60,132 bases of DNA from Jannaschia maritima (GTDB taxonomy: Bacteria; Pseudomonadota; Alphaproteobacteria; Rhodobacterales; Rhodobacteraceae): NCBI RefSeq assembly GCF_030973515.1, contig NZ_JARGZA010000019.1:1-60132 (forward strand), in the 5' to 3' direction. Numbering within the stretch: position 1 is the stretch's first letter; every line of letters begins with the position of its first letter. A program made the translations under genes and the position numbers. Shown piece after piece: positions 7,020-44,150 of this stretch. The notes beneath the pieces are model-generated. The model did not search any database and was not told where the DNA came from. It worked only from the letters and a program-made list of their open reading frames with translations.

Positions 7020-7066
7020 TAGGCGATCGATAGGATAGCATCGGATCGATCGTCAAGGAGGTCGTG

Positions 7067-35919: not shown

Positions 35920-37641
35920 TCAGAAGATAGCGGGTTCGGGCGCGCCGGCGCCCAGGAGGAAGTCGAAGTCGCAGCCCGTGTCCGCCTGCCCCACATGCGC
36001 GGCATAGAGCCGGGCGAAGCCGCGCGCGGGCGGCGCGGGCGGACGGTGGCCTTCCAGGCGTTCGGCGATCTGGGCGTCGGACAGGGCCACGTCGAGGCGG
36101 CGGGCCGACAGCGACAGGGTCACGCGGTCGCCGTCGCGCAGGGCGGCCAGCGGTCCGCCGGCGGCCGATTCGGGGACCACGTGGAGGACGCAGGTGCCGC
36201 CATGCGTCCCGCTCATGCGGGCGTCGGACAGGCGCAGCATGTCGCGCACGCCCCGCTTCAGGAGCTTCCGGGGAATGGGGAGGTTGCCCCATTCCGGCAT
36301 CCCCGGCCCGCCCAGCGGCCCGCCGCCCCTCAACACCAGGACGCTGTCGGGCGTCACGTCGAGGTCGGGGTCGTCGATCCGCGCGCGCATGTCGGCGGGG
36401 CCGTCGAAGACGATCGCGGGCCCCGAATGCTCGAGCAGGGCGGGGGTCGCGGCGGTGGGCTTCATGATCGCGCCGCCGGGGGCCAGGTTGCCGCGCAGCT
36501 GCGCCAGGGGGGGCGCGTCCGAGACCGGATTCGACAGGGGCCGGATCACGTCGTCGTCCCAACATTCCGCGTCCCGGTAGCCGTCGGCCAGCGTGCCGCC
36601 GGCCACGGTGGGCGCGTCGCCGTCCAGCCGATCGTCCAGGCGCCGCATGAGGGCGGGCAGCCCGCCCGCGCGGAAGAAGTCGGCCATCAGGTGCGTGCCG
36701 GCGGGGAACAGGTTGGCCAGGAGCGGCGTCCGCCGGGCGGCCGCGTCGATCAGGTCGCCGGGCAGGTCCACCCCCGCCCGGCCCGCGAGCGCGGCCAGGT
36801 GGACGGCCGCGTTGGTGGAGCCCCCGATCGCCGCCAGCACATGCGCGGCGTTTCCGAACGCCCGTTCGGTCGCTATCGCGCCGGGCGCGATGCCCCCATC
36901 CGCCAGCGCCACCGCGCGCGCGCCCGCCCGGTACGCCATCCGGCGGTGGGCCGAATCCATGGCCGGGATCGACGCGGCGCCCGGCAGGGTGAAGCCCATC
37001 GCCTCCGCCAGCAGGGTCATGGTCGACGCGGTGCCCATCGTCTGGCAGGTCCCCGGAGAGCGGGTCATCACGCCTTCGAGCTCGACCCAGTCGTCGTCGC
37101 CCACGTTGCCGGCCTGCTTCTCGTCCCAATACATCCGGGTGTGGGTGCCCGCCCCGAGCGTGCGGCCGCGCCAGTGGCCCGACAGCATCGGCCCCGCGGG
37201 CACGACGATCGCGGGCAGGCCCATGCTGATCGCCCCCATCAGGAGGCCCGGCACCGTCTTGTCGCACCCGCCCAGGAGGACGGCCGCGTCGATCGGGTGG
37301 GAGCGGAGCAACTCCTCCGCCTCCATGGCCAGCATGTTGCGGTAGAGCATGGTGGTGGGCTTCACCATCACCTCCCCCAGCGACAGGGCGGGCAGCTCGA
37401 CCGCAAAGCCGCCTGCCCGGGTGATGCCGCGGGCGACGTCGGCGGCGCGTTCGCGCAGATGCGCGTGGCAGGGGGACAGGTCGGACCAGGTGTTCAGGAT
37501 GGCGACGACGGGGCGGCCCAGGAACTCGGACCGATCGAAGCCCATCTGCTGCGCGCGCTGACGGTGCGCGAACTGGCGCATGCCGCCGTCCCTGAACCAG
37601 CGATCGCTGCGGCGAGCCGTCATGTTCGGTTCGTCGGCCAT
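35920..37641 (-). CDS. IlvD/Edd-family sugar-acid dehydratase
   Basis: 573 residues. Three cysteines expected for an iron-sulphur cluster are visible: SPCHAHL, GGCDKTVPG and SPGTCQTMGTASTM. The length and the Cys-Asp-Lys-Thr motif favour the pentonate/hexonate (L-arabinonate/D-xylonate-type) branch over the amino-acid-biosynthetic IlvD. It produces a 2-keto-3-deoxy acid. First gene of a seven-gene minus-strand operon. ATG 37641 is only 1 bp from a GntR-type palindrome, leaving little room for a ribosome site; ATG 37623 is the alternative start. Confidence 0.88.
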   Translation of the reverse strand: MADEPNMTARRSDRWFRDGGMRQFAHRQRAQQMGFDRSEFLGRPVVAILNTWSDLSPCHAHLRERAADVARGITRAGGFAVELPALSLGEVMVKPTTMLYRNMLAMEAEELLRSHPIDAAVLLGGCDKTVPGLLMGAISMGLPAIVVPAGPMLSGHWRGRTLGAGTHTRMYWDEKQAGNVGDDDWVELEGVMTRSPGTCQTMGTASTMTLLAEAMGFTLPGAASIPAMDSAHRRMAYRAGARAVALADGGIAPGAIATERAFGNAAHVLAAIGGSTNAAVHLAALAGRAGVDLPGDLIDAAARRTPLLANLFPAGTHLMADFFRAGGLPALMRRLDDRLDGDAPTVAGGTLADGYRDAECWDDDVIRPLSNPVSDAPPLAQLRGNLAPGGAIMKPTAATPALLEHSGPAIVFDGPADMRARIDDPDLDVTPDSVLVLRGGGPLGGPGMPEWGNLPIPRKLLKRGVRDMLRLSDARMSGTHGGTCVLHVVPESAAGGPLAALRDGDRVTLSLSARRLDVALSDAQIAERLEGHRPPAPPARGFARLYAAHVGQADTGCDFDFLLGAGAPEPAIF

Positions 37642-37642
37642 G

Positions 37643-37656
37643 TGTTACCGGTAACA
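37643..37656. promoter_or_regulatory. GntR/LacI-type operator palindrome TGTTACCGGTAACA
   Basis: Perfect 14-bp palindrome directly upstream of the IlvD/Edd start codon. The core equals the known gluconate-repressor operator (TGTTACC-GGTAACA). The operon encodes a GntR-like LacI protein, the likely binder. Confidence 0.78.
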
Positions 37657-37766
37657 AGGAATTGACAAGTTGGATAGGCACCCGCGTGCAATGACGGGTT
37701 CGGTTGCCACGTCTGCGACGCAGATCACCAGGTTAAGATACTGACGATGTTCGATATTACCGAAGG

Positions 37767-37780
37767 TTGCCAACTGGCAA
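37767..37780. other. parS-like palindrome, left copy
   Basis: TTGCCAACTGGCAA, identical in both half-sites to TTGCCAGCTGGCAA at 41577-41590; flanking bases also match (GTTGCCA...TGGCAAT). It lies 9 bp beyond the rep stop codon. Together the two copies bracket the rep-parA-parB module. Confidence 0.7.
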
Positions 37781-37789
37781 TTGGGATCG

Positions 37790-38824
37790 TCAGATCGGGT
37801 TCTTCTCGGCGAACGTGCGGAAGAAGGCCAAAAAGGCGCGGTCGGGATCGCGGGGGGCGTCACGATCCCGGGACCAGTCCCGCCATACCCCTTCCACGTA
37901 ATAGATGTCATAGCCCGGAAAGCGCATGCGCGCCGTCTCGTAGGTTTCCGTCCGCAGAGCCGCCCCGCGGGCGTCGAGCCAGCTCGGACGGGCCGGGGCG
38001 GGGGATGGGGAATGAGCCGGGGCTTCCGCGGGCGGTCCGTCCCGCCGTTCGCGGCGCCCGACCTTCGAGAAGGCCAGTTCCCGTTCCGCCGCGCCCTGCC
38101 CCGCCCCGTCCTTGCGCCACCATCGCAGTTCCACATGGGTCACGCGGCGGCCCGTCTTGATCGGCGCCACCTCCACCACGTAGTCGGAAAGCTGGTTCAC
38201 CTCCGCGCAGGCCGGATCGATGGAGCGCAGCTTGAGGTTGGACCAGGATGTCAGCTTGCCCTTCGGCACGCCGAGGATGCCGCGCAGCTCGTCCAAGCTG
38301 AAACGGTCCGAAGATCGCCAACGCAGGTTCCCGCGCTTCTGCACCATCTCATAGAGTGTCAGCGCATATTTCGACGTCAGCGCGAACATCACCTCGCGCT
38401 GGAGGCGGGCGAAGACGGTGGAGTTGCCGATGATCTGCCGCAGCCGCGCGGGGATCTCATATTCCAGAAGCCCATCGGCGCGAAGCGTTTCGATGTTGCC
38501 GCCCAGGAGTTGCACGCGCTCCACGGCAGGCTCGCCGTCCCACACGACCTGGACCTTGACGATGGCCGACATCAGTCGTTCCACCGACGCGCCGATCCGG
38601 TCGTTGCTGTTATGCGTGCCGCGCAGGTCGGCCTTCGCGATCACGTGGGTAACGGGCCGGTCGATCGCGTCCCATGCGTTCTCGAGCAGGAGGTTGTAGA
38701 GACGTCGGTCAGCCAGGGTCAGGGGCGTGACCTCGACCACGTCGACTAGTTCCCCGGGCTTTACGAGCGAACCATCGTTGGGTCGGGCGTCCAGCGTGCG
38801 GTATCGGTCCGGAGGCTTCGCCAT
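37790..38824 (-). CDS. Rep_3-family (RepB-type) plasmid replication initiator
   Basis: About 344 residues with two winged-helix halves of Rep_3 initiators: LTLADRRLYNLLLENAWDA, LLGGNIETLRADGLLEYEIP, FALTSKYALTLYEMVQKR and LDELRGILGVPKGKLTSWSNLK. A Pro/Ala-rich linker and a DUF-like tail (RFPGYDIYYVEGVWRDW) follow. It binds iterons and opens the origin. ATG 38824 is preferred over 38830 because AAGGG then sits six bases ahead. That ribosome site is inside a repeat copy, so Rep binding could block its own expression. Divergent from parA. Confidence 0.87.
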   Translation of the reverse strand: MAKPPDRYRTLDARPNDGSLVKPGELVDVVEVTPLTLADRRLYNLLLENAWDAIDRPVTHVIAKADLRGTHNSNDRIGASVERLMSAIVKVQVVWDGEPAVERVQLLGGNIETLRADGLLEYEIPARLRQIIGNSTVFARLQREVMFALTSKYALTLYEMVQKRGNLRWRSSDRFSLDELRGILGVPKGKLTSWSNLKLRSIDPACAEVNQLSDYVVEVAPIKTGRRVTHVELRWWRKDGAGQGAAERELAFSKVGRRERRDGPPAEAPAHSPSPAPARPSWLDARGAALRTETYETARMRFPGYDIYYVEGVWRDWSRDRDAPRDPDRAFLAFFRTFAEKNPI

Positions 38825-38830
38825 GCCCAT

Positions 38831-38916
38831 CCCTTACGTCGAGTGCGATGCGCAGGTATGGTATGGGCGTGATCCCGGCCGGTCCAGGGGGTAAGTGGAA
38901 ACCCAAAACGTAAGGG
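38831..38916. promoter_or_regulatory. Inverted iteron pair in the rep leader
   Basis: CCCTTACGT (38831-38839) and ACGTAAGGG (38908-38916) are perfect 9-base inverse copies 68 bp apart. Rep_3 initiators commonly repress their own gene through such inverted half-iterons. The left copy overlaps the rep ribosome site. Confidence 0.6.
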
Positions 38917-39011
38917 TTCACGTATCTGGCACGGAGCCGGCGATTCGGCCCGTGCCCCGGAACAGCCCACAAAGGAAGTCGAATCGTCCATCCACGCAAC
39001 GAATCGGTACC

Positions 39012-39020
39012 TGTGGATAA
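39012..39020 (-). promoter_or_regulatory. DnaA box
   Basis: TTATCCACA on the minus strand (TGTGGATAA on the plus strand), an exact match to the DnaA-box consensus, immediately before the iteron-like repeats. Confidence 0.75.
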
Positions 39021-39025
39021 GGCCG

Positions 39026-39146
39026 CACCCCAAACGTACCGATACCCCACCCCGCACGTAAGCCACCCCATCCCGATCCGTAAGTCCCCGCACCCCGGAT
39101 GTAAGTAATACGGTGAAATGGGGCATATTTCATTGGCTTTAATGCA
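39026..39146 (+). other. Probable replication origin: iteron-like repeats and AT-rich segment
   Basis: CGTA cores occur at 39035, 39057 and 39079 and a TGTA variant at 39100, i.e. every 21-22 bp, two turns of the helix. Each is preceded by a C-rich stretch (ACCCCAAACGTA, CCCCGCACGTAAG, CCGATCCGTAAG, CCCCGGATGTAAG). They are followed by the most AT-rich stretch of the module (about 39101-39146, with CATATTTCATTGGCTTTAAT). Repeats plus DnaA box plus AT-rich DNA is the arrangement of iteron origins. The remaining gap to 39399 shows no gene. Confidence 0.65.
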
Positions 39147-39399
39147 CGGCGAACAAGTGAACCCGTGAATCGGAAGCAGCGGTGATTTCATCCGATTTAG
39201 GGTGGATGGGGACGGCGCTCGCGGTCATCGTTGAGTTTCGATGCGATTCTGAGTGCGGAGACCGACCGGGGTTCGCCCGTAGAGGCAGGATCAGCAAAGG
39301 TTCGTATTTGATGGCGATGCCGACCAAAAACCGCACTTGCTGCGACCTACCCCGTTTGCGATGAAGCGACGAACCCCTTCCGCATGTAGGACCATCGCC

Positions 39400-40602
39400 A
39401 TGGACGGACCCGCCCTGCCCGGCGTTGGACTGGACGAACTGGAAGGCCTGTCCGAGCGGGCCGCCACCGTGATCGAACGGCTGCGGGACCGGATCTATGC
39501 CCCCGGAACAGAGAAGCGGCTGGACCTGCGGTTCAACGTCCGCACCGCCGCCGACATGGTCGGACGGACGGAGAAGGCCATCCGTGACGCCGAAGGCGAC
39601 GGGCGCCTTCCCGTGCCCGACAAGGACCCGGATACGAACCGGCGCACGGGCTATTCCCTGGCGCAGGTCAACGCGATGCGGCAGGTGTTCGGCACCCTGC
39701 CCCACCGCGCCCCGGAGGATCCGGCCTGCGTTCTGGCCGTGCAGAACTTCAAGGGCGGCGTCGCCAAGTCCACGATGGTCACGCATCTGGCGCAGAACTT
39801 CGCGATGAAGGGCTATCGCGTCTGCGTGGTCGATTGCGACAGTCAGGCTTCGACGACCGCGATCTTCGGGCTGAACCCCGACGTGGACGTCGACGAGGGG
39901 GAGGACACGCTCTATCCGTTCTTCCGCCACGGTGGGCCGCGGGACCTGCGCTATGCCCTGCGCGCGACGTACTGGCCCGGCATCGCGTTGATCCCCGCGA
40001 ACCTGGGTCTGTACGACGCGGAATACGAGTTCGCGGCCCGCATGGCGCGCGAGCAGACCCTCGTGCTCGACCGTCTGCGCGAAGGGATCGAATCGATCGC
40101 GGACGAATTCGACGTGATCCTGCTGGACCCGCCGCCCGCGCTGGGGATGATATCCCTGTCGGTCCTGCGGGCCGCCAACGCCCTGCTTATCCCCGCGCCG
40201 CCCAACAACATCGACTTCGGCTCGACCGCGCATTTCCTCAAGATGATGGGCGCGACCCTGTCGGAGATCGCCCGGCACGGGGGCGCGCGCGACTATAGCT
40301 TCGTGAAGATCCTGGCGACGAAGATGAACGATCAGAAGTCCGCGCACGTGGCCATCAAGCGGATGATGGATGCGGTCTTCCCTTCGGACATGCTCCAGGC
40401 CACGCTGAAGGACAGCGCCGAGATCGACAACGCCACCGCGAACCTGTCCACCGTCTACGAGCTGACGGGGCCGCAGACCCGCACCGACACCCACAAGCGG
40501 TGCCGCGCCTATCTCGACGCCATCGGGCGCGAGGTGGAGACGTTGATTCGCAAGACCTGGCCCAGCCACCACGCCGCGCTGCGCAAGGAGGGGGTGCTTT
40601 GA
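39400..40602 (+). CDS. parA: ParA-family partition ATPase (type Ia)
   Basis: 400 residues. An N-terminal helix-turn-helix/MerR-like region (TAADMVGRTEKAIRDAEGDG) precedes the ATPase with deviant Walker A KGGVAKST (about 118), Walker A' VVDCDSQASTT and Walker B FDVILLDPPPAL. The extra N-terminal DNA-binding part marks type Ia ParA proteins, which move plasmids and also repress their own promoter. ATG 39400 is chosen for the AGGA eight bases upstream; upstream in-frame starts lack a ribosome site. It is divergent from rep and 25 bp ahead of parB. Confidence 0.92.
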   Translation: MDGPALPGVGLDELEGLSERAATVIERLRDRIYAPGTEKRLDLRFNVRTAADMVGRTEKAIRDAEGDGRLPVPDKDPDTNRRTGYSLAQVNAMRQVFGTLPHRAPEDPACVLAVQNFKGGVAKSTMVTHLAQNFAMKGYRVCVVDCDSQASTTAIFGLNPDVDVDEGEDTLYPFFRHGGPRDLRYALRATYWPGIALIPANLGLYDAEYEFAARMAREQTLVLDRLREGIESIADEFDVILLDPPPALGMISLSVLRAANALLIPAPPNNIDFGSTAHFLKMMGATLSEIARHGGARDYSFVKILATKMNDQKSAHVAIKRMMDAVFPSDMLQATLKDSAEIDNATANLSTVYELTGPQTRTDTHKRCRAYLDAIGREVETLIRKTWPSHHAALRKEGVL

Positions 40603-40627
40603 GACACACAAAGGGAAGGGACGTCCG

Positions 40628-41575
40628 ATGAGCAGCAAGCATTCCGCGATCCTGGACGCGGTGAACGGGTTGAACGACGGCCTCGTGCCGGAATCGAAGC
40701 GCCCGGCGCGGTTCCTGACCCGGTCCAACCGCATGGCCGAACGCCTGTCCGGCGAGATCGAGGAGAAGACATGGCGACGCGTCGATCCCGCCTCGTGCCG
40801 GATGTGGGCGCGCCACAACCGGGCCTATGACCTGCTGACGCCGGAGAATTGCGCCGACCTGATCGAGGGGATCCGGTCGCAGGGCCAGCAGGAGTTTCCG
40901 GCGATCGTGCGGGCCACGGGCGACGCGGCCCAACCCTACGAGGTCATCTGCGGGGCACGGCGGCACTTCGCGGTGACGTGGCTTCGGGCCAACAACTATC
41001 CGCAGTTCAAGTACCTGATCGAGGTGCGCGACCTGACGGACGAGGCCGCGTTCCGGCTGGCCGACATCGAGAACCGCGACCGCGAGGACATCAGCGATTA
41101 CGAGCGGGCGGTCGACTACCTGGACGCGTTGGAGCGATATTACGACGGGTCGCAGAAGGACATGGCCGCTCGGCTGGAGATGTCGCCCGGCTATCTGTCG
41201 CGGTTCCTGCAGATGGCGCGTCTGCCGCGCGAGATCGTGGCCGCGTTTCCGTCCGTCCGCGACATCCGCGAACCACATGCCCGGACGTTGAAGAAGCACT
41301 TGGACGACCGCGCGTCGCGGGAGGCGCTGCTGGCCCGCGCGACGGATCTGGCGGGGCAGGGGCTGGATTCGGGCGCGGTGATGAAGGCGTTGACCGCATC
41401 AGTGGCTGCGCCCAAGCCGAAGGCGGGGGCGAAGACCTATGCGGGGGAGGCGGGAGAGCCGCCGATCAGGGTGAGGCGGACGGGCCGCAAGGTCACGGTG
41501 GAATTTCCCGCCTCGCTGTCGGATGCGTCGATCCGCACGGCGATGGAGCGGTACCTCGCAGACCGTCGGAGGTGA
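40628..41575 (+). CDS. parB: ParB-family partition protein
   Basis: 315 residues. The N-terminal ParB/Srx domain has EVICGARRHFAV (CTP-binding box) and ADIENRDREDISDYERAVDYL. A central helix-turn-helix (KDMAARLEMSPGYLSRFLQMARLP) would read the centromere, and a C-terminal dimerisation region ends RTAMERYLADRRR. GGGAAGGGACG precedes the start. One base after the stop lies a 14-bp palindrome that is the best candidate for its binding site. Confidence 0.92.
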   Translation: MSSKHSAILDAVNGLNDGLVPESKRPARFLTRSNRMAERLSGEIEEKTWRRVDPASCRMWARHNRAYDLLTPENCADLIEGIRSQGQQEFPAIVRATGDAAQPYEVICGARRHFAVTWLRANNYPQFKYLIEVRDLTDEAAFRLADIENRDREDISDYERAVDYLDALERYYDGSQKDMAARLEMSPGYLSRFLQMARLPREIVAAFPSVRDIREPHARTLKKHLDDRASREALLARATDLAGQGLDSGAVMKALTASVAAPKPKAGAKTYAGEAGEPPIRVRRTGRKVTVEFPASLSDASIRTAMERYLADRRR

Positions 41576-41576
41576 G

Positions 41577-41590
41577 TTGCCAGCTGGCAA
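41577..41590. other. parS-like palindrome, right copy
   Basis: TTGCCAGCTGGCAA, a perfect palindrome beginning one base after the parB stop. It differs from the copy beside rep (37767-37780) only at one central base. Confidence 0.72.
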
Positions 41591-41710
41591 TCGTGCGGAT
41601 TATCGTTTGAACGTAGGGTGTTACGGGATCATCCGGCATGAACGCGGCCGCGATTGTCGGGGGCGTGCCGCCCCCCTAGGCTGGCGGAGCAACAGCCACA
41701 GGACGCCCCC

Positions 41711-42676
41711 GTGACCAGACCGAACCGCCCCCGCTATGCCGCCCGCCTGAACGCGTTCAAGCCGATGGGGGGTGGGATCGGGGGCATGATCGCCGCAGCC
41801 GGATCCGTGGGTGGGCTGACGGCGGCGGACCTGAACTATCCCGACCATTTCGATGGGCAGTCCCCGGACGCGTTGTCGGAGATGCTGGGGGATGCGGGGC
41901 TGGCGTTGAACGGCTTGGCGATGCGCTACTATACCGAGCCGGGGTTCAAGATCGGGGCCTTCACCAACCCCGACCCGTCCGTGCAGCAGGCGGCGGTGGA
42001 TCTGACCAAGCGGGGCATGGATGCCTGCCGGGCCATGGGCGGCACGGTGATGACGCTGTGGATGGGGCAGGACGGGTTCGACTACGCCTTGCAGGGCGAG
42101 TACGGGCGGATGTGGGACGACACGGTCGCCGCCCTGCGGGCGGTGGCCGACCACGACCCGGACCTGGACGTCGCCGTCGAATACAAACCCAACGAGCCGC
42201 GCGCCTATGCCTTGATGCCCGACGTCGGCACCACAATCCTGGGCGTGCGGGAGGCGGGGTGCGCGAACCTGGGCGTGACGTTGGACTTCGCCCATGTGCT
42301 GTATGCCGACGAGATGCCGGCCCACGCGGCGCATCTGATCCATCGCTGGTCGCGGCTGCTGGGGGTCCATCTGAACGACGGCTATGGCAAGCGCGACGAC
42401 GGGCTGATGGTGGGCACCGTCCATCCTGTCGCCACGGTGGAGCTGTTCGTCGAGCTGGACCGGATCGGCTACGACGGGGCGATCTATTTCGACACGTTCC
42501 CCGACCATGGCGGCCTGGACCCGGTGGAGGAGGCGCGCACCAACCTGGCGCTGGTCGAACGCCTGCGCGACCTGGCGGCGGAGGTGGGGGCGATGCCGGA
42601 CCTGCGCGACGCCATCGCGCGGCAGGACGGGGCGGCGTCGCAGCGGATCGTGGCGCGGGCCCTGTACGGTGCCTGA
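41711..42676 (+). CDS. Xylose-isomerase-like TIM-barrel sugar epimerase/isomerase
   Basis: 321 residues. The AP endonuclease 2/xylose isomerase barrel is recognisable from the metal ligands: VAVEYKPNEP (Glu), GVTLDFAHVLYAD (Asp and His), GVHLNDGYGKRDD (His/Asp) and AIYFDTFPDHGG. Members interconvert sugars or sugar phosphates such as rhamnose, tagatose and xylulose derivatives. GTG 41711 has AGGA seven bases upstream. It overlaps the PfkB gene by 8 bp, so they act together. Confidence 0.85.
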   Translation: MTRPNRPRYAARLNAFKPMGGGIGGMIAAAGSVGGLTAADLNYPDHFDGQSPDALSEMLGDAGLALNGLAMRYYTEPGFKIGAFTNPDPSVQQAAVDLTKRGMDACRAMGGTVMTLWMGQDGFDYALQGEYGRMWDDTVAALRAVADHDPDLDVAVEYKPNEPRAYALMPDVGTTILGVREAGCANLGVTLDFAHVLYADEMPAHAAHLIHRWSRLLGVHLNDGYGKRDDGLMVGTVHPVATVELFVELDRIGYDGAIYFDTFPDHGGLDPVEEARTNLALVERLRDLAAEVGAMPDLRDAIARQDGAASQRIVARALYGA

Positions 42677-43490: not shown

Positions 43491-43518
43491 CTTGGTCGGA
43501 CTAACCGGAGGCGAAGAC

Positions 43519-43761
43519 ATGCGGACCGTCAACATGCACGAAGCGAAGACGCATCTGTCGCGGCTGGTCGATGCGGCGTCCAAGGGCGAGGACTTCGTCA
43601 TCGCGCGGGCCGGGAAGCCCTTGGTCAAGGTGACGGCCATCGCGGAAGCCGAAACGGCGACGCCCCGGATGGGATTCATGAAAGGGTCGGTCCCCGACGA
43701 TTTCGACACGATGTTCGCCGATGAGATCGCGGAGATGTTCGGGACCGCCATTCCGAAGTGA
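43519..43761 (+). CDS. Phd/YefM-family antitoxin
   Basis: 80 residues: MRTVNMHEAKTHLSRLVDAASKGEDFVIARAGKPLVKV is the classic Phd DNA-binding half, and the acidic C-terminal part (DDFDTMFADEIAEMF) is the toxin-binding tail. GGAGG precedes ATG 43519. Its stop overlaps the toxin start (GTGA). It would neutralise the PIN toxin and repress the pair. Confidence 0.9.
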   Translation: MRTVNMHEAKTHLSRLVDAASKGEDFVIARAGKPLVKVTAIAEAETATPRMGFMKGSVPDDFDTMFADEIAEMFGTAIPK

Positions 43762-44150
43762 GTCGCGCGCTTCTCGACACGCATCTTTTGCTTTGGGCAG
43801 CGATCGCGCCGCACCGTCTTCCCCGTGACGTCGCGGCGGCCTTGTCCGACGGACCCCTGACTCCCGTATACTCGGTCGCGTCCCTGTGGGAGGTGACGAT
43901 CAAGGCGGGTCAAGGCCGCGCCGACTTCGAGGTCGATCCGAACGAATTGCGCCGCGGGTTGCTCGCCGCGGGCTACCGGGAGCTTGCGATCGAAGCACGG
44001 CATGCCTTGGCGGTCGCCGACCTGCCCGCACTCCACGGCGACCCGTTCGATCGTCTGATGCTGGCGCAGGCGCGGATCGAACGGTTGCCGTTCTGGACGG
44101 TGGACCGGGCGGTCCTGCGTTATGGCAGCCCGGCGGAGGATGTCGGCTAG
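43758..44150 (+). CDS. PIN-domain toxin (VapC-like ribonuclease)
   Basis: 130 residues. Acidic metal-site residues of PIN nucleases are visible: LLDTHLLLWA (Asp7), SVASLWEVTIK (Glu), GDPFDRLMLAQA (Asp) and WTVDRAVLRYG (Asp). With the preceding Phd-type antitoxin it forms a type II addiction module 2.2 kb from parB, placed as if to stabilise this replicon. The start is GTG 43758. Confidence 0.9.
   Translation: MSRALLDTHLLLWAAIAPHRLPRDVAAALSDGPLTPVYSVASLWEVTIKAGQGRADFEVDPNELRRGLLAAGYRELAIEARHALAVADLPALHGDPFDRLMLAQARIERLPFWTVDRAVLRYGSPAEDVG

What the first reader, a model, noticed from the sequence alone, without database searches (positions are those of the whole stretch)
37767..41590. Two near-identical palindromes bracket the rep-parA-parB module: candidate paired centromere
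TTGCCAACTGGCAA sits 9 bp past the rep stop and TTGCCAGCTGGCAA sits one base past the parB stop. Half-sites and flanking bases are the same; only one central base differs, and I saw no further copy in the window. Palindromes beside parB are the usual form of parS, so two copies as outer borders of the whole module would put a ParB-loaded site on each side of the origin. This could also mark the module as a mobile unit exchanged between replicons.
Basis: partly seen in the sequence, partly recalled or inferred. Interest (0 to 1): 0.75.

Follow-up and report, generated by a model that had tools for sequence, protein, structure and literature searches.

The report
Paired plasmid centromere sites, two specificities
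The two matching DNA palindromes are almost certainly the docking sites of the protein that shares out this plasmid at cell division; relatives carry the same pair in one of two spellings, and one amino acid of that protein goes with the spelling, which gives a simple test of how plasmid centromeres change identity.

Summary
In detail: TTGCCAACTGGCAA (37767-37780) lies 9 bp past rep and TTGCCAGCTGGCAA (41577-41590) 1 bp past parB, the only TTGCCANNTGGCAA in the 3.67-Mb genome. The module is RepB-III-like. In 96 distinct relatives TTGCC[A/C]NN[T/G]GGCAA recurs beside the same genes: two copies in 82, three in 2, one in 11, none in 1; permuted half-sites give almost nothing. Bracketing is one of two main layouts: TTGCCA replicons usually have a site after rep and one after parB, TTGCCC replicons usually both after parB. 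All 84 modules with two or more sites spell base 6 alike. ParB residue 216 is Arg in 26 of 26 TTGCCC and 0 of 53 TTGCCA modules; 10 of 10 further modules agree. It aligns with Noc R186 and F SopB R219, known centromere-specificity residues; Noc R186 reads this base pair. But the switches are few (3-4 per tree) and one distant group breaks the rule. So: paired parS, strongly supported, binding untested; the mobile-unit idea is not supported. A new variant of a known kind (ParABS).

The parts
37767..37780 (.). left ParB-site candidate (parS-L), TTGCCAACTGGCAA, 9 bp past the rep stop
   Evidence: nearest left site within 64 bp of the rep stop in 55 of the 56 relatives that have a left site
41577..41590 (.). 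right ParB-site candidate (parS-R), TTGCCAGCTGGCAA, 1 bp past the parB stop
   Evidence: nearest right site within 25 bp of the parB stop in 91 of the 92 relatives that have a right site
37790..38830 (-). rep, Rep_3-family initiator, 346 aa
   Evidence: Pfam Rep3_N and Rep3_C; 73.4% identical to Rep of pDSM107133_h and 74.6% to Rep of pSD118, both typed RepB-III in print
38831..39399 (.). rep-parA intergenic region, likely origin: imperfect direct repeats containing (A)CGTA or TGTA; TGTGGATAA at 39012-39020 (DnaA-box consensus recalled)
   Evidence: for repeats; for sequence; origin function inferred
39400..40602 (+). parA, 400 aa, type Ia Walker ATPase
   Evidence: Pfam AAA_31; NCBIfam partition_RepA and SopA models match below their cut-offs
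40628..41575 (+). parB, 315 aa, centromere-binding protein of SopB/Noc/ParB type
   Evidence: Pfam SoPB_HTH above cut-off, ParB_N just below its cut-off; NCBIfam parB_part above cut-off
41090..41311 (+). SopB-type helix-turn-helix domain of ParB, the only PF18090 match in the genome at E up to 0.001
41273..41275 (+). codon of ParB residue 216 (Pro here), the residue that tracks base 6 of the site in relatives

Best explanation
The two palindromes are the parS centromere sites of this RepB-III-type replicon. ParB (40628-41575) is inferred to bind each 14-bp palindrome as a dimer through its SopB-type HTH, to load there as a CTP-dependent clamp, to spread over the rep-origin-parAB core, and to be moved by ParA, so that the plasmid is partitioned. 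The conserved feature is a pair of same-spelling sites, one of them right behind parB; the second is behind rep (this plasmid and most TTGCCA relatives) or a little further behind parB (most TTGCCC relatives). ParB residue 216, or residues inherited with it, sets whether base pair 6 (the second from the centre) must be A:T or C:G. Shown here: the sites, their conservation and placement, their concordance, the co-variation, and the alignment of residue 216 with Noc R186 and SopB R219. Inferred: binding, clamp loading, partition, and the cause of the co-variation.
For: Only two copies of TTGCCANNTGGCAA in the genome, both at this module, and a single SopB-type ParB match in the genome. In 96 distinct relatives, 179 sites in 95 modules in the flanks; of 29 permuted half-sites 28 gave none and one gave 2. 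84 of 84 modules with two or more sites carry the same base at position 6 in all of them, including sites about 4 kb apart on opposite sides of the module. Residue 216 is Arg in 26 of 26 C-type and 0 of 53 A-type modules and is the top of 375 alignment columns by mutual information. Ten further modules agree, 10 of 10; their nearest ParB in the first set is 54-92% identical, four of them about 55%; plus one module from another family of the class. HMMER aligns the column with R186 of B. subtilis Noc (7ol9) and with F SopB R219. Passages of PMC7383237: that Arg reads C6:G-6, Gly there goes with A6. Passages of PMC7205306: SopB R219A does not bind sopC specifically. sopC as fetched also has C at position 6. 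In 15 complete plasmids 27 of 31 matches lie at the module (the two of the record behind L063 by inferred position of parB), reversed-pattern control 0 in all 15.
Against: No binding data. The A/C switch happened few times: 4 changes on the ParB tree without columns 150-240, 3 on the Rep tree, 3 on the ParA tree, and only 1, 1 and 2 independent contrasts on well-supported branches, too few for significance; so co-inheritance is not excluded. Two distant plasmids, pNL1 and plsm_A, have Arg at the aligned position but TTGCCA sites, so the residue rule is not universal. Two family members have hybrid sites TTGCCCATTGGCAA, one with Arg and one with Leu. 11 of 96 modules show one exact site nearby and one shows none; 7 of the 11 have a one-mismatch second site, two (L074, L079) have an exact one about 2.5 kb downstream, two (L006, L139) have neither. 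Four of the ten further modules (L192-L195) show one exact site. The pattern is not exclusive: 221 of 290 same-family genomes hold it somewhere.
Confidence: 0.9

Rival explanations
1. Bidirectional intrinsic transcription terminators: each palindrome lies just behind a gene (rep on the left, parB on the right) and could fold into a hairpin in RNA.
For: Position directly after stop codons in most modules. RNA folds contain the small stem. T-rich 3' flanks in some relatives: at least 5 T of 8 in 9 of 20 second C-type right sites and 14 of 49 left A-type sites.
Against: No terminator-like site in window 37400-42000; neither site here has a T run. Only 4 of 50 first A-type and 7 of 28 first C-type right sites have one. 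A terminator needs no fixed sequence, no matching base at both sites (84 of 84) and no link to a ParB residue.
Confidence: 0.04
2. Operators for transcriptional control by a regulator (ParB or Rep) rather than centromere sites.
For: ParB-type proteins can repress nearby promoters (established knowledge, recalled); in two of the 96 modules one site lies in the rep-parA gap near the rep start (L061, L085).
Against: In this window and in most relatives the sites are at the 3' ends of rep and parB, not at promoters. The sigma-70-like match starting at 41577 is one against 0.6 expected by chance.
Confidence: 0.04
3. Borders of a mobile rep-par cassette exchanged between replicons.
For: The module sits in different gene contexts in different plasmids (annotated regions); passages of PMC6052148 argue that a RepB-III module replaced a DnaA-like I module in the S. 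guttiformis photosynthesis plasmid.
Against: Similarity between modules fades inside parB (median 128 bp before its stop at 80-90% identity, 296 bp before at 75-80%) and near the rep stop, or runs far past the sites in many of the closest pairs (of 10 pairs at 90% or more, 6 on the left and 8 on the right by over 200 bp); no sharp edge at the palindromes on the right. Many replicons have no left site at all. I recognised no recombinase gene between the sites.
Confidence: 0.02
4. The sites are parS, but residue 216 merely hitch-hikes: other HTH residues (for example 188 or 220) set the A/C choice.
For: Columns 220 and 188 rank second and third in mutual information; few independent switches; pNL1-type exceptions.
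Against: The isolated C-type modules L050 and L056 have Ala or Thr at 188 yet Arg at 216; structural and mutational data on the homologous residue in Noc and SopB (PMC7383237, PMC7205306, passages).
Confidence: 0.25

Closest known systems
F plasmid sopABC (Rep_3 initiator RepE, SopA, SopB, centromere sopC)
   Same: rep gene plus type Ia parAB with a SopB_HTH ParB; centromere palindromes behind the ParB gene; ParB residue 216 aligns with SopB R219; C at position 5 of the half-site in my numbering; RepE as Rep_3 is recalled
   Different: rep is divergent from parAB here and co-oriented in F; two solitary sites instead of a tandem array; different half-site; A6 here, C6 in sopC
Chromosomal ParB-parS and Noc-NBS (Jalal et al. 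2020, PMC7383237, passages seen)
   Same: an A6 or C6 choice at the same place relative to the dyad, going with the residue at the equivalent of position 201 (Gly in ParB, Arg in Noc); full parS and NBS sequences recalled
   Different: chromosomal systems; other bases at 1-4; the non-Arg state here is mostly Leu/Val/Ile (Pro in the window), not Gly
repABC replicons of Rhodobacterales and their parS (PMC9040568, passages seen)
   Same: rep and par genes together, palindromic sites inside or next to the module, often several copies
   Different: consensus there GTTNNNNGCNNNNAAC; initiator is RepC, in one operon with repAB
RepB-III compatibility group (pSD118 in PMC6052148; pDSM107133_h in PMC9025767)
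   Same: by sequence the same module type: Rep 73-75% identical, parAB beside it
   Different: in the passages of these papers that I saw, no centromere site is described for it
SopB-like ParB plasmids of Sphingomonadales and Caulobacterales (loci L201-L203, L205)
   Same: paired or tripled palindromes of the same geometry (TTGCACNNGTGCAA), one of them 6-10 bp behind rep in all four
   Different: half-site differs at bases 5-6; another site is in the parA-parB gap; rep co-oriented

Membership tests
ParABS (type Ia) centromere system | ParA deviant Walker ATPase of the long (SopA/RepA) kind | tested here: met
   400 aa, AAA_31 above cut-off, best NCBIfam match partition_RepA (275 bits, cut-off 348), SopA model also matched below cut-off
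ParABS (type Ia) centromere system | ParB with ParB_N fold and HTH centromere-binding domain | tested here: met
   SoPB_HTH and parB_part above cut-off, ParB_N 24.3 bits against a cut-off of 26.3; the model of a relative (L091) matches Noc, ParB and SopB structures
ParABS (type Ia) centromere system | palindromic sites near parAB, conserved with the genes | tested here: met
   at least one exact site in 95 of 96 distinct modules
ParABS (type Ia) centromere system | half-site geometry and specificity residue shared with known parS | tested here: met
   base 6 second from the dyad, residue 216 aligned with Noc R186 and SopB R219; paper passages PMC7383237; parS and NBS sequences recalled
ParABS (type Ia) centromere system | ParB binds the site | not testable with these tools
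   needs gel shift, BLI or ChIP-seq
ParABS (type Ia) centromere system | site needed in cis for stability or exerting incompatibility | not testable with these tools
   needs mini-replicon assays
RepB-III compatibility group of Rhodobacterales | close Rep kinship with typed RepB-III plasmids | tested here: met
   73.4% to pDSM107133_h, 74.6% to pSD118; types from the PMC9025767 table and PMC6052148 passages
RepB-III compatibility group of Rhodobacterales | incompatibility with other members | tested here: inconclusive
   29 of 29 genomes with a Rep match (E up to 1e-30) and 34 of 34 (E up to 1e-100; the two sets overlap) have exactly one; consistent but indirect
Intrinsic terminator | G+C-rich hairpin followed by a T run | tested here: not met
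   0 found in window 37400-42000
Transposable cassette | sharp ends of similarity at the repeats and a recombinase | tested here: not met
   between the sites only rep, parA and parB were recognised

The most novel reading that the evidence does not exclude
RepB-III plasmids have repeatedly switched centromere identity (TTGCCA to TTGCCC or back) by changing one ParB residue, 216, with both centromere sites switching together; the residue-base contact is the one that separates Noc from ParB, so a portable code 'Arg at this position, C:G at base pair 6' would let the centromere be partly read from the ParB sequence. The paired layout would in addition be a real requirement: two loading sites that enclose, or lie beside, the replication-partition core.
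Probability: 0.45. Interest if true: 0.72.

Novelty: new variant of a known kind. Interest (0 to 1): 0.58.

Why it matters
It names the likely centromere of a plasmid group spread over many Rhodobacterales (one member, pSD118, carries photosynthesis genes) for which I found no site in the papers I could search and whose passages I read. It offers a natural series in which centromere spelling, site layout and ParB sequence vary together, so the question of how a centromere and its binding protein change partners can be tested with single residue and single base swaps. It also says that the pair, not the bracketing as such, is what is conserved.

Tried and rejected
Terminator reading: scanned and folded, counted T runs in relatives; rejected as main role. 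Mobile-cassette reading: similarity edges compared over 4,560 pairs; rejected. Genome-wide rarity as an argument: the looser pattern occurs in 221 of 290 genomes, so I rely on position, not rarity. Universal residue code: tested on 11 distant plasmid loci out of the 60 listed of 275 records; 6 follow it (Arg or Lys with C6, one of them, L204, with a single site), L206 has Glu with G6, L209 and L211 break it, L208 and L210 gave no repeated site. One of two structure predictions and one PDB fold search were used; the second prediction, the viral and VIA fold libraries, Rfam and the covariance-model tools were not. Rows dropped before the counts: L064 (rep outside the stretch), 7 incomplete loci, 12 with a ParB identical to one kept, then 14 more at 90% ParB identity for the residue test; 3 of those 82 (two hybrid, one without an exact site) are outside the A/C comparison. 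In one search, 3 of 27 regions were incomplete and 14 duplicates; 2 of the 10 kept (L193, L194) are 98% alike. Papers: passages only of PMC9025767, PMC9040568, PMC3832669, PMC3925955, PMC4572655, PMC3910702, PMC6052148, PMC6739100, PMC7205306, PMC7383237; the other papers were seen in listings only.
Full report
What was claimed and what is there. Two 14-bp palindromes, TTGCCAACTGGCAA at 37767-37780 and TTGCCAGCTGGCAA at 41577-41590, sit 9 bp past the rep stop and 1 bp past the parB stop. They are the only two matches of TTGCCANNTGGCAA in the window's own genome, 3,667,722 bases in 45 contigs. The window is a whole contig of 60,132 bp but not a shown circle: its ends show no exact overlap, and an open frame breaks at the junction.

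The module. Rep (37790-38830, minus strand) is a Rep_3 initiator; ParA (39400-40602) is a type Ia ATPase; ParB (40628-41575) has the SopB-type HTH and a ParB_N-like part. The genome has no second PF18090 match at E up to 0.001. Rep is 73.4% identical to that of pDSM107133_h and 74.6% to that of pSD118. The first is typed RepB-III in the table of PMC9025767 (passages seen), the second in PMC6052148 and PMC6739100 (passages seen). So the replicon belongs, by sequence, to the RepB-III group. The rep-parA gap holds imperfect direct repeats and a TGTGGATAA at 39012-39020, which fits the DnaA-box consensus as I recall it.

Conservation. I collected relatives by Rep or ParB from plasmid records, same-family genomes and one genome per species (the best 80 of 128). 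Of 116 loci examined, 115 gave a rep hit in the stretch, 108 had both rep and parB closed, and 96 had distinct ParB proteins. Within 200 bp left of the rep stop, inside the module, or within 250 bp right of the parB stop, 82 of 96 have two sites TTGCC[A/C]NN[T/G]GGCAA, 2 have three, 11 have one and 1 has none. In the two flanks there are 179 sites in 95 modules; of 29 permuted half-sites 28 gave none and one gave 2. The nearest right site is within 25 bp of the parB stop in 91 of 92 modules that have one; the nearest left site within 64 bp of the rep stop in 55 of 56. Of the 11 with one exact site, 7 have a one-mismatch second one (L004, L054, L059, L086, L100, L143, L144), L074 and L079 have an exact one about 2.5 kb downstream, L006 and L139 have neither. 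In 15 complete plasmids all 15 have a match, 31 in all, of which 27 lie at the module (two of them, in the record behind L063, by inferred position of parB); the reversed pattern gives none. Against an argument from rarity: 221 of 290 same-family genomes hold the looser pattern somewhere, and in the window's own genome its reversed control is as frequent, 2 and 2.

Two spellings, two layouts. A-type modules (TTGCCA) have mostly one site behind rep and one behind parB (49 of 96 modules; 2 more with a second left copy); C-type modules (TTGCCC) have mostly two behind parB (27 of 96). Exceptions exist both ways: two A-type with both sites on the right, two C-type that bracket, two C-type with one site in the rep-parA gap. 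In 84 of 84 modules with two or more sites, all these sites of the module share the base at position 6. Sites about 4 kb apart that agree suggest one protein reading both.

The link to ParB. Among 82 ParBs below 90% identity, column 216 (window numbering) has the highest mutual information with the spelling of 375 columns: Arg in 26 of 26 C-type, and in 0 of 53 A-type, where it is Leu 44, Val 4, Ile 2, Pro 1 (the window), Ala 1, Ser 1. Ten complete further modules, fetched afterwards in 27 regions (3 incomplete, 14 duplicates), all agree: Arg with C in 3, Leu with A in 7. They are not all far from the first set: nearest ParB identity 92, 90, 87, 81, 75, 67 and four at 55-56%; of these last four, three have a C-type ParB as nearest in the first set, yet have Leu and A. 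Two of them are 98% alike. A module from another family of the class also agrees. A decayed module in a 4.19-Mb contig (L058) keeps a ParB piece with ERHAR and two C-type sites. HMMER aligns the column with R186 of B. subtilis Noc (7ol9) and with the Arg of LSAR in SopB, residue 219 of F SopB as fetched. In passages of PMC7383237 that I read, Arg at this position reads C6:G-6 and Gly goes with A6, from binding assays and co-crystals. In passages of PMC7205306, SopB R219A lacks specific sopC binding. sopC itself, read from the F plasmid record, has C at position 6. By my numbering, with parS and NBS sequences recalled, position 6 is the second pair from the centre in parS, NBS, sopC and the present sites, and position 5 is C in all four. 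In the model of L091 ParB the Arg stands at the start of the helix 217-228 that follows the HTH.

Limits. The switches are few: 4 changes on a ParB tree without columns 150-240, 3 on the Rep tree, 3 on the ParA tree; independent contrasts on starred branches are 1, 1 and 2, so no test reaches significance. Two family members have hybrid sites (L006 with Arg, L143 with Leu). In 11 more distant plasmid loci, a search for repeated 6+2+6 palindromes near parB found one in 8, and L204 has a single one of the same spelling as its kin; Arg or Lys at the column goes with C6 in 6, Glu with G6 in L206, and Arg with A6 in pNL1 (L209) and plsm_A (L211), against the rule. Nothing here shows binding.

Rivals. 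Terminators: none found by scan; T runs are a minority in all four site classes, 4 of 50, 7 of 28, 14 of 49 and 9 of 20. Operators: sites mostly at gene ends, not promoters. Mobile-unit borders: similarity does not end at the sites. None of these explains the shared base and the ParB link.

Print. No paper in the held library prints TTGCCAATTGGCAA, TTGCCCATGGGCAA, the two window spellings or two 16-bp forms. PMC3925955, which describes pAMI1 (L060), has no 'parS', 'palindrom' or 'centromere' in its main text. The library lacks most subscription papers, among them works on Rhodobacterales plasmid types that I recall but could not read; a published RepB-III palindrome cannot be excluded.

Verdict. 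Almost certainly the parS sites of a RepB-III-type plasmid: a known kind of system, with a new natural variation in spelling and layout tied to one ParB residue.

Noticed in passing
37643-37656: Perfect palindrome TGTTACCGGTAACA one base upstream of the start of the ORF 35920-37641 (minus strand; by eye an IlvD/Edd-type dehydratase, no family search); looks like an operator of a LacI- or GntR-type regulator; single copy in the window.
   Followed up: partly
about 43500-44150: Open frames that look like a PHD-type antitoxin followed by a PIN-domain (VapC-like) toxin (43758-44150), by eye from translations; no family search was run.
   Followed up: no
L058, 5023-5036, 5199-5212 and 5788-6361: Decayed RepB-III module in a 4.19-Mb contig: broken rep, a ParB piece with ERHAR, no parA match, both C-type palindromes kept; a likely chromosomal fossil of plasmid integration.
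   Followed up: partly
L201, L202, L203, L205 (Sphingomonadales, Caulobacterales plasmids): TTGCACNNGTGCAA palindromes 6-10 bp behind rep and in the parA-parB gap; the pNL1-type plasmids L209 and L211 have GTTGCCACGTGGCAAC between parA and parB: a wider family of related centromere spellings.
   Followed up: partly
L006 at 7039-7052; L143 2 bp right of parB: Hybrid site TTGCCCATTGGCAA, one half of each spelling; possible evolutionary intermediate.
   Followed up: no
records behind L005, L007, L008, L065: One extra match of the palindrome pattern about 6 to 37 kb from the module in each of these four complete plasmids, two of them perfect TTGCCCATGGGCAA.
   Followed up: no
L136 and L140 (Limimaricola): Three A-type sites: two on the left (119 and 20 bp from the rep stop) and one behind parB.
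   Followed up: no
L057: The only module of 96 without an exact site has TTACCAATTGGTAA 3 bp behind parB and TTGCCAATTGGTAA about 70 bp behind it; perhaps a third spelling.
   Followed up: no
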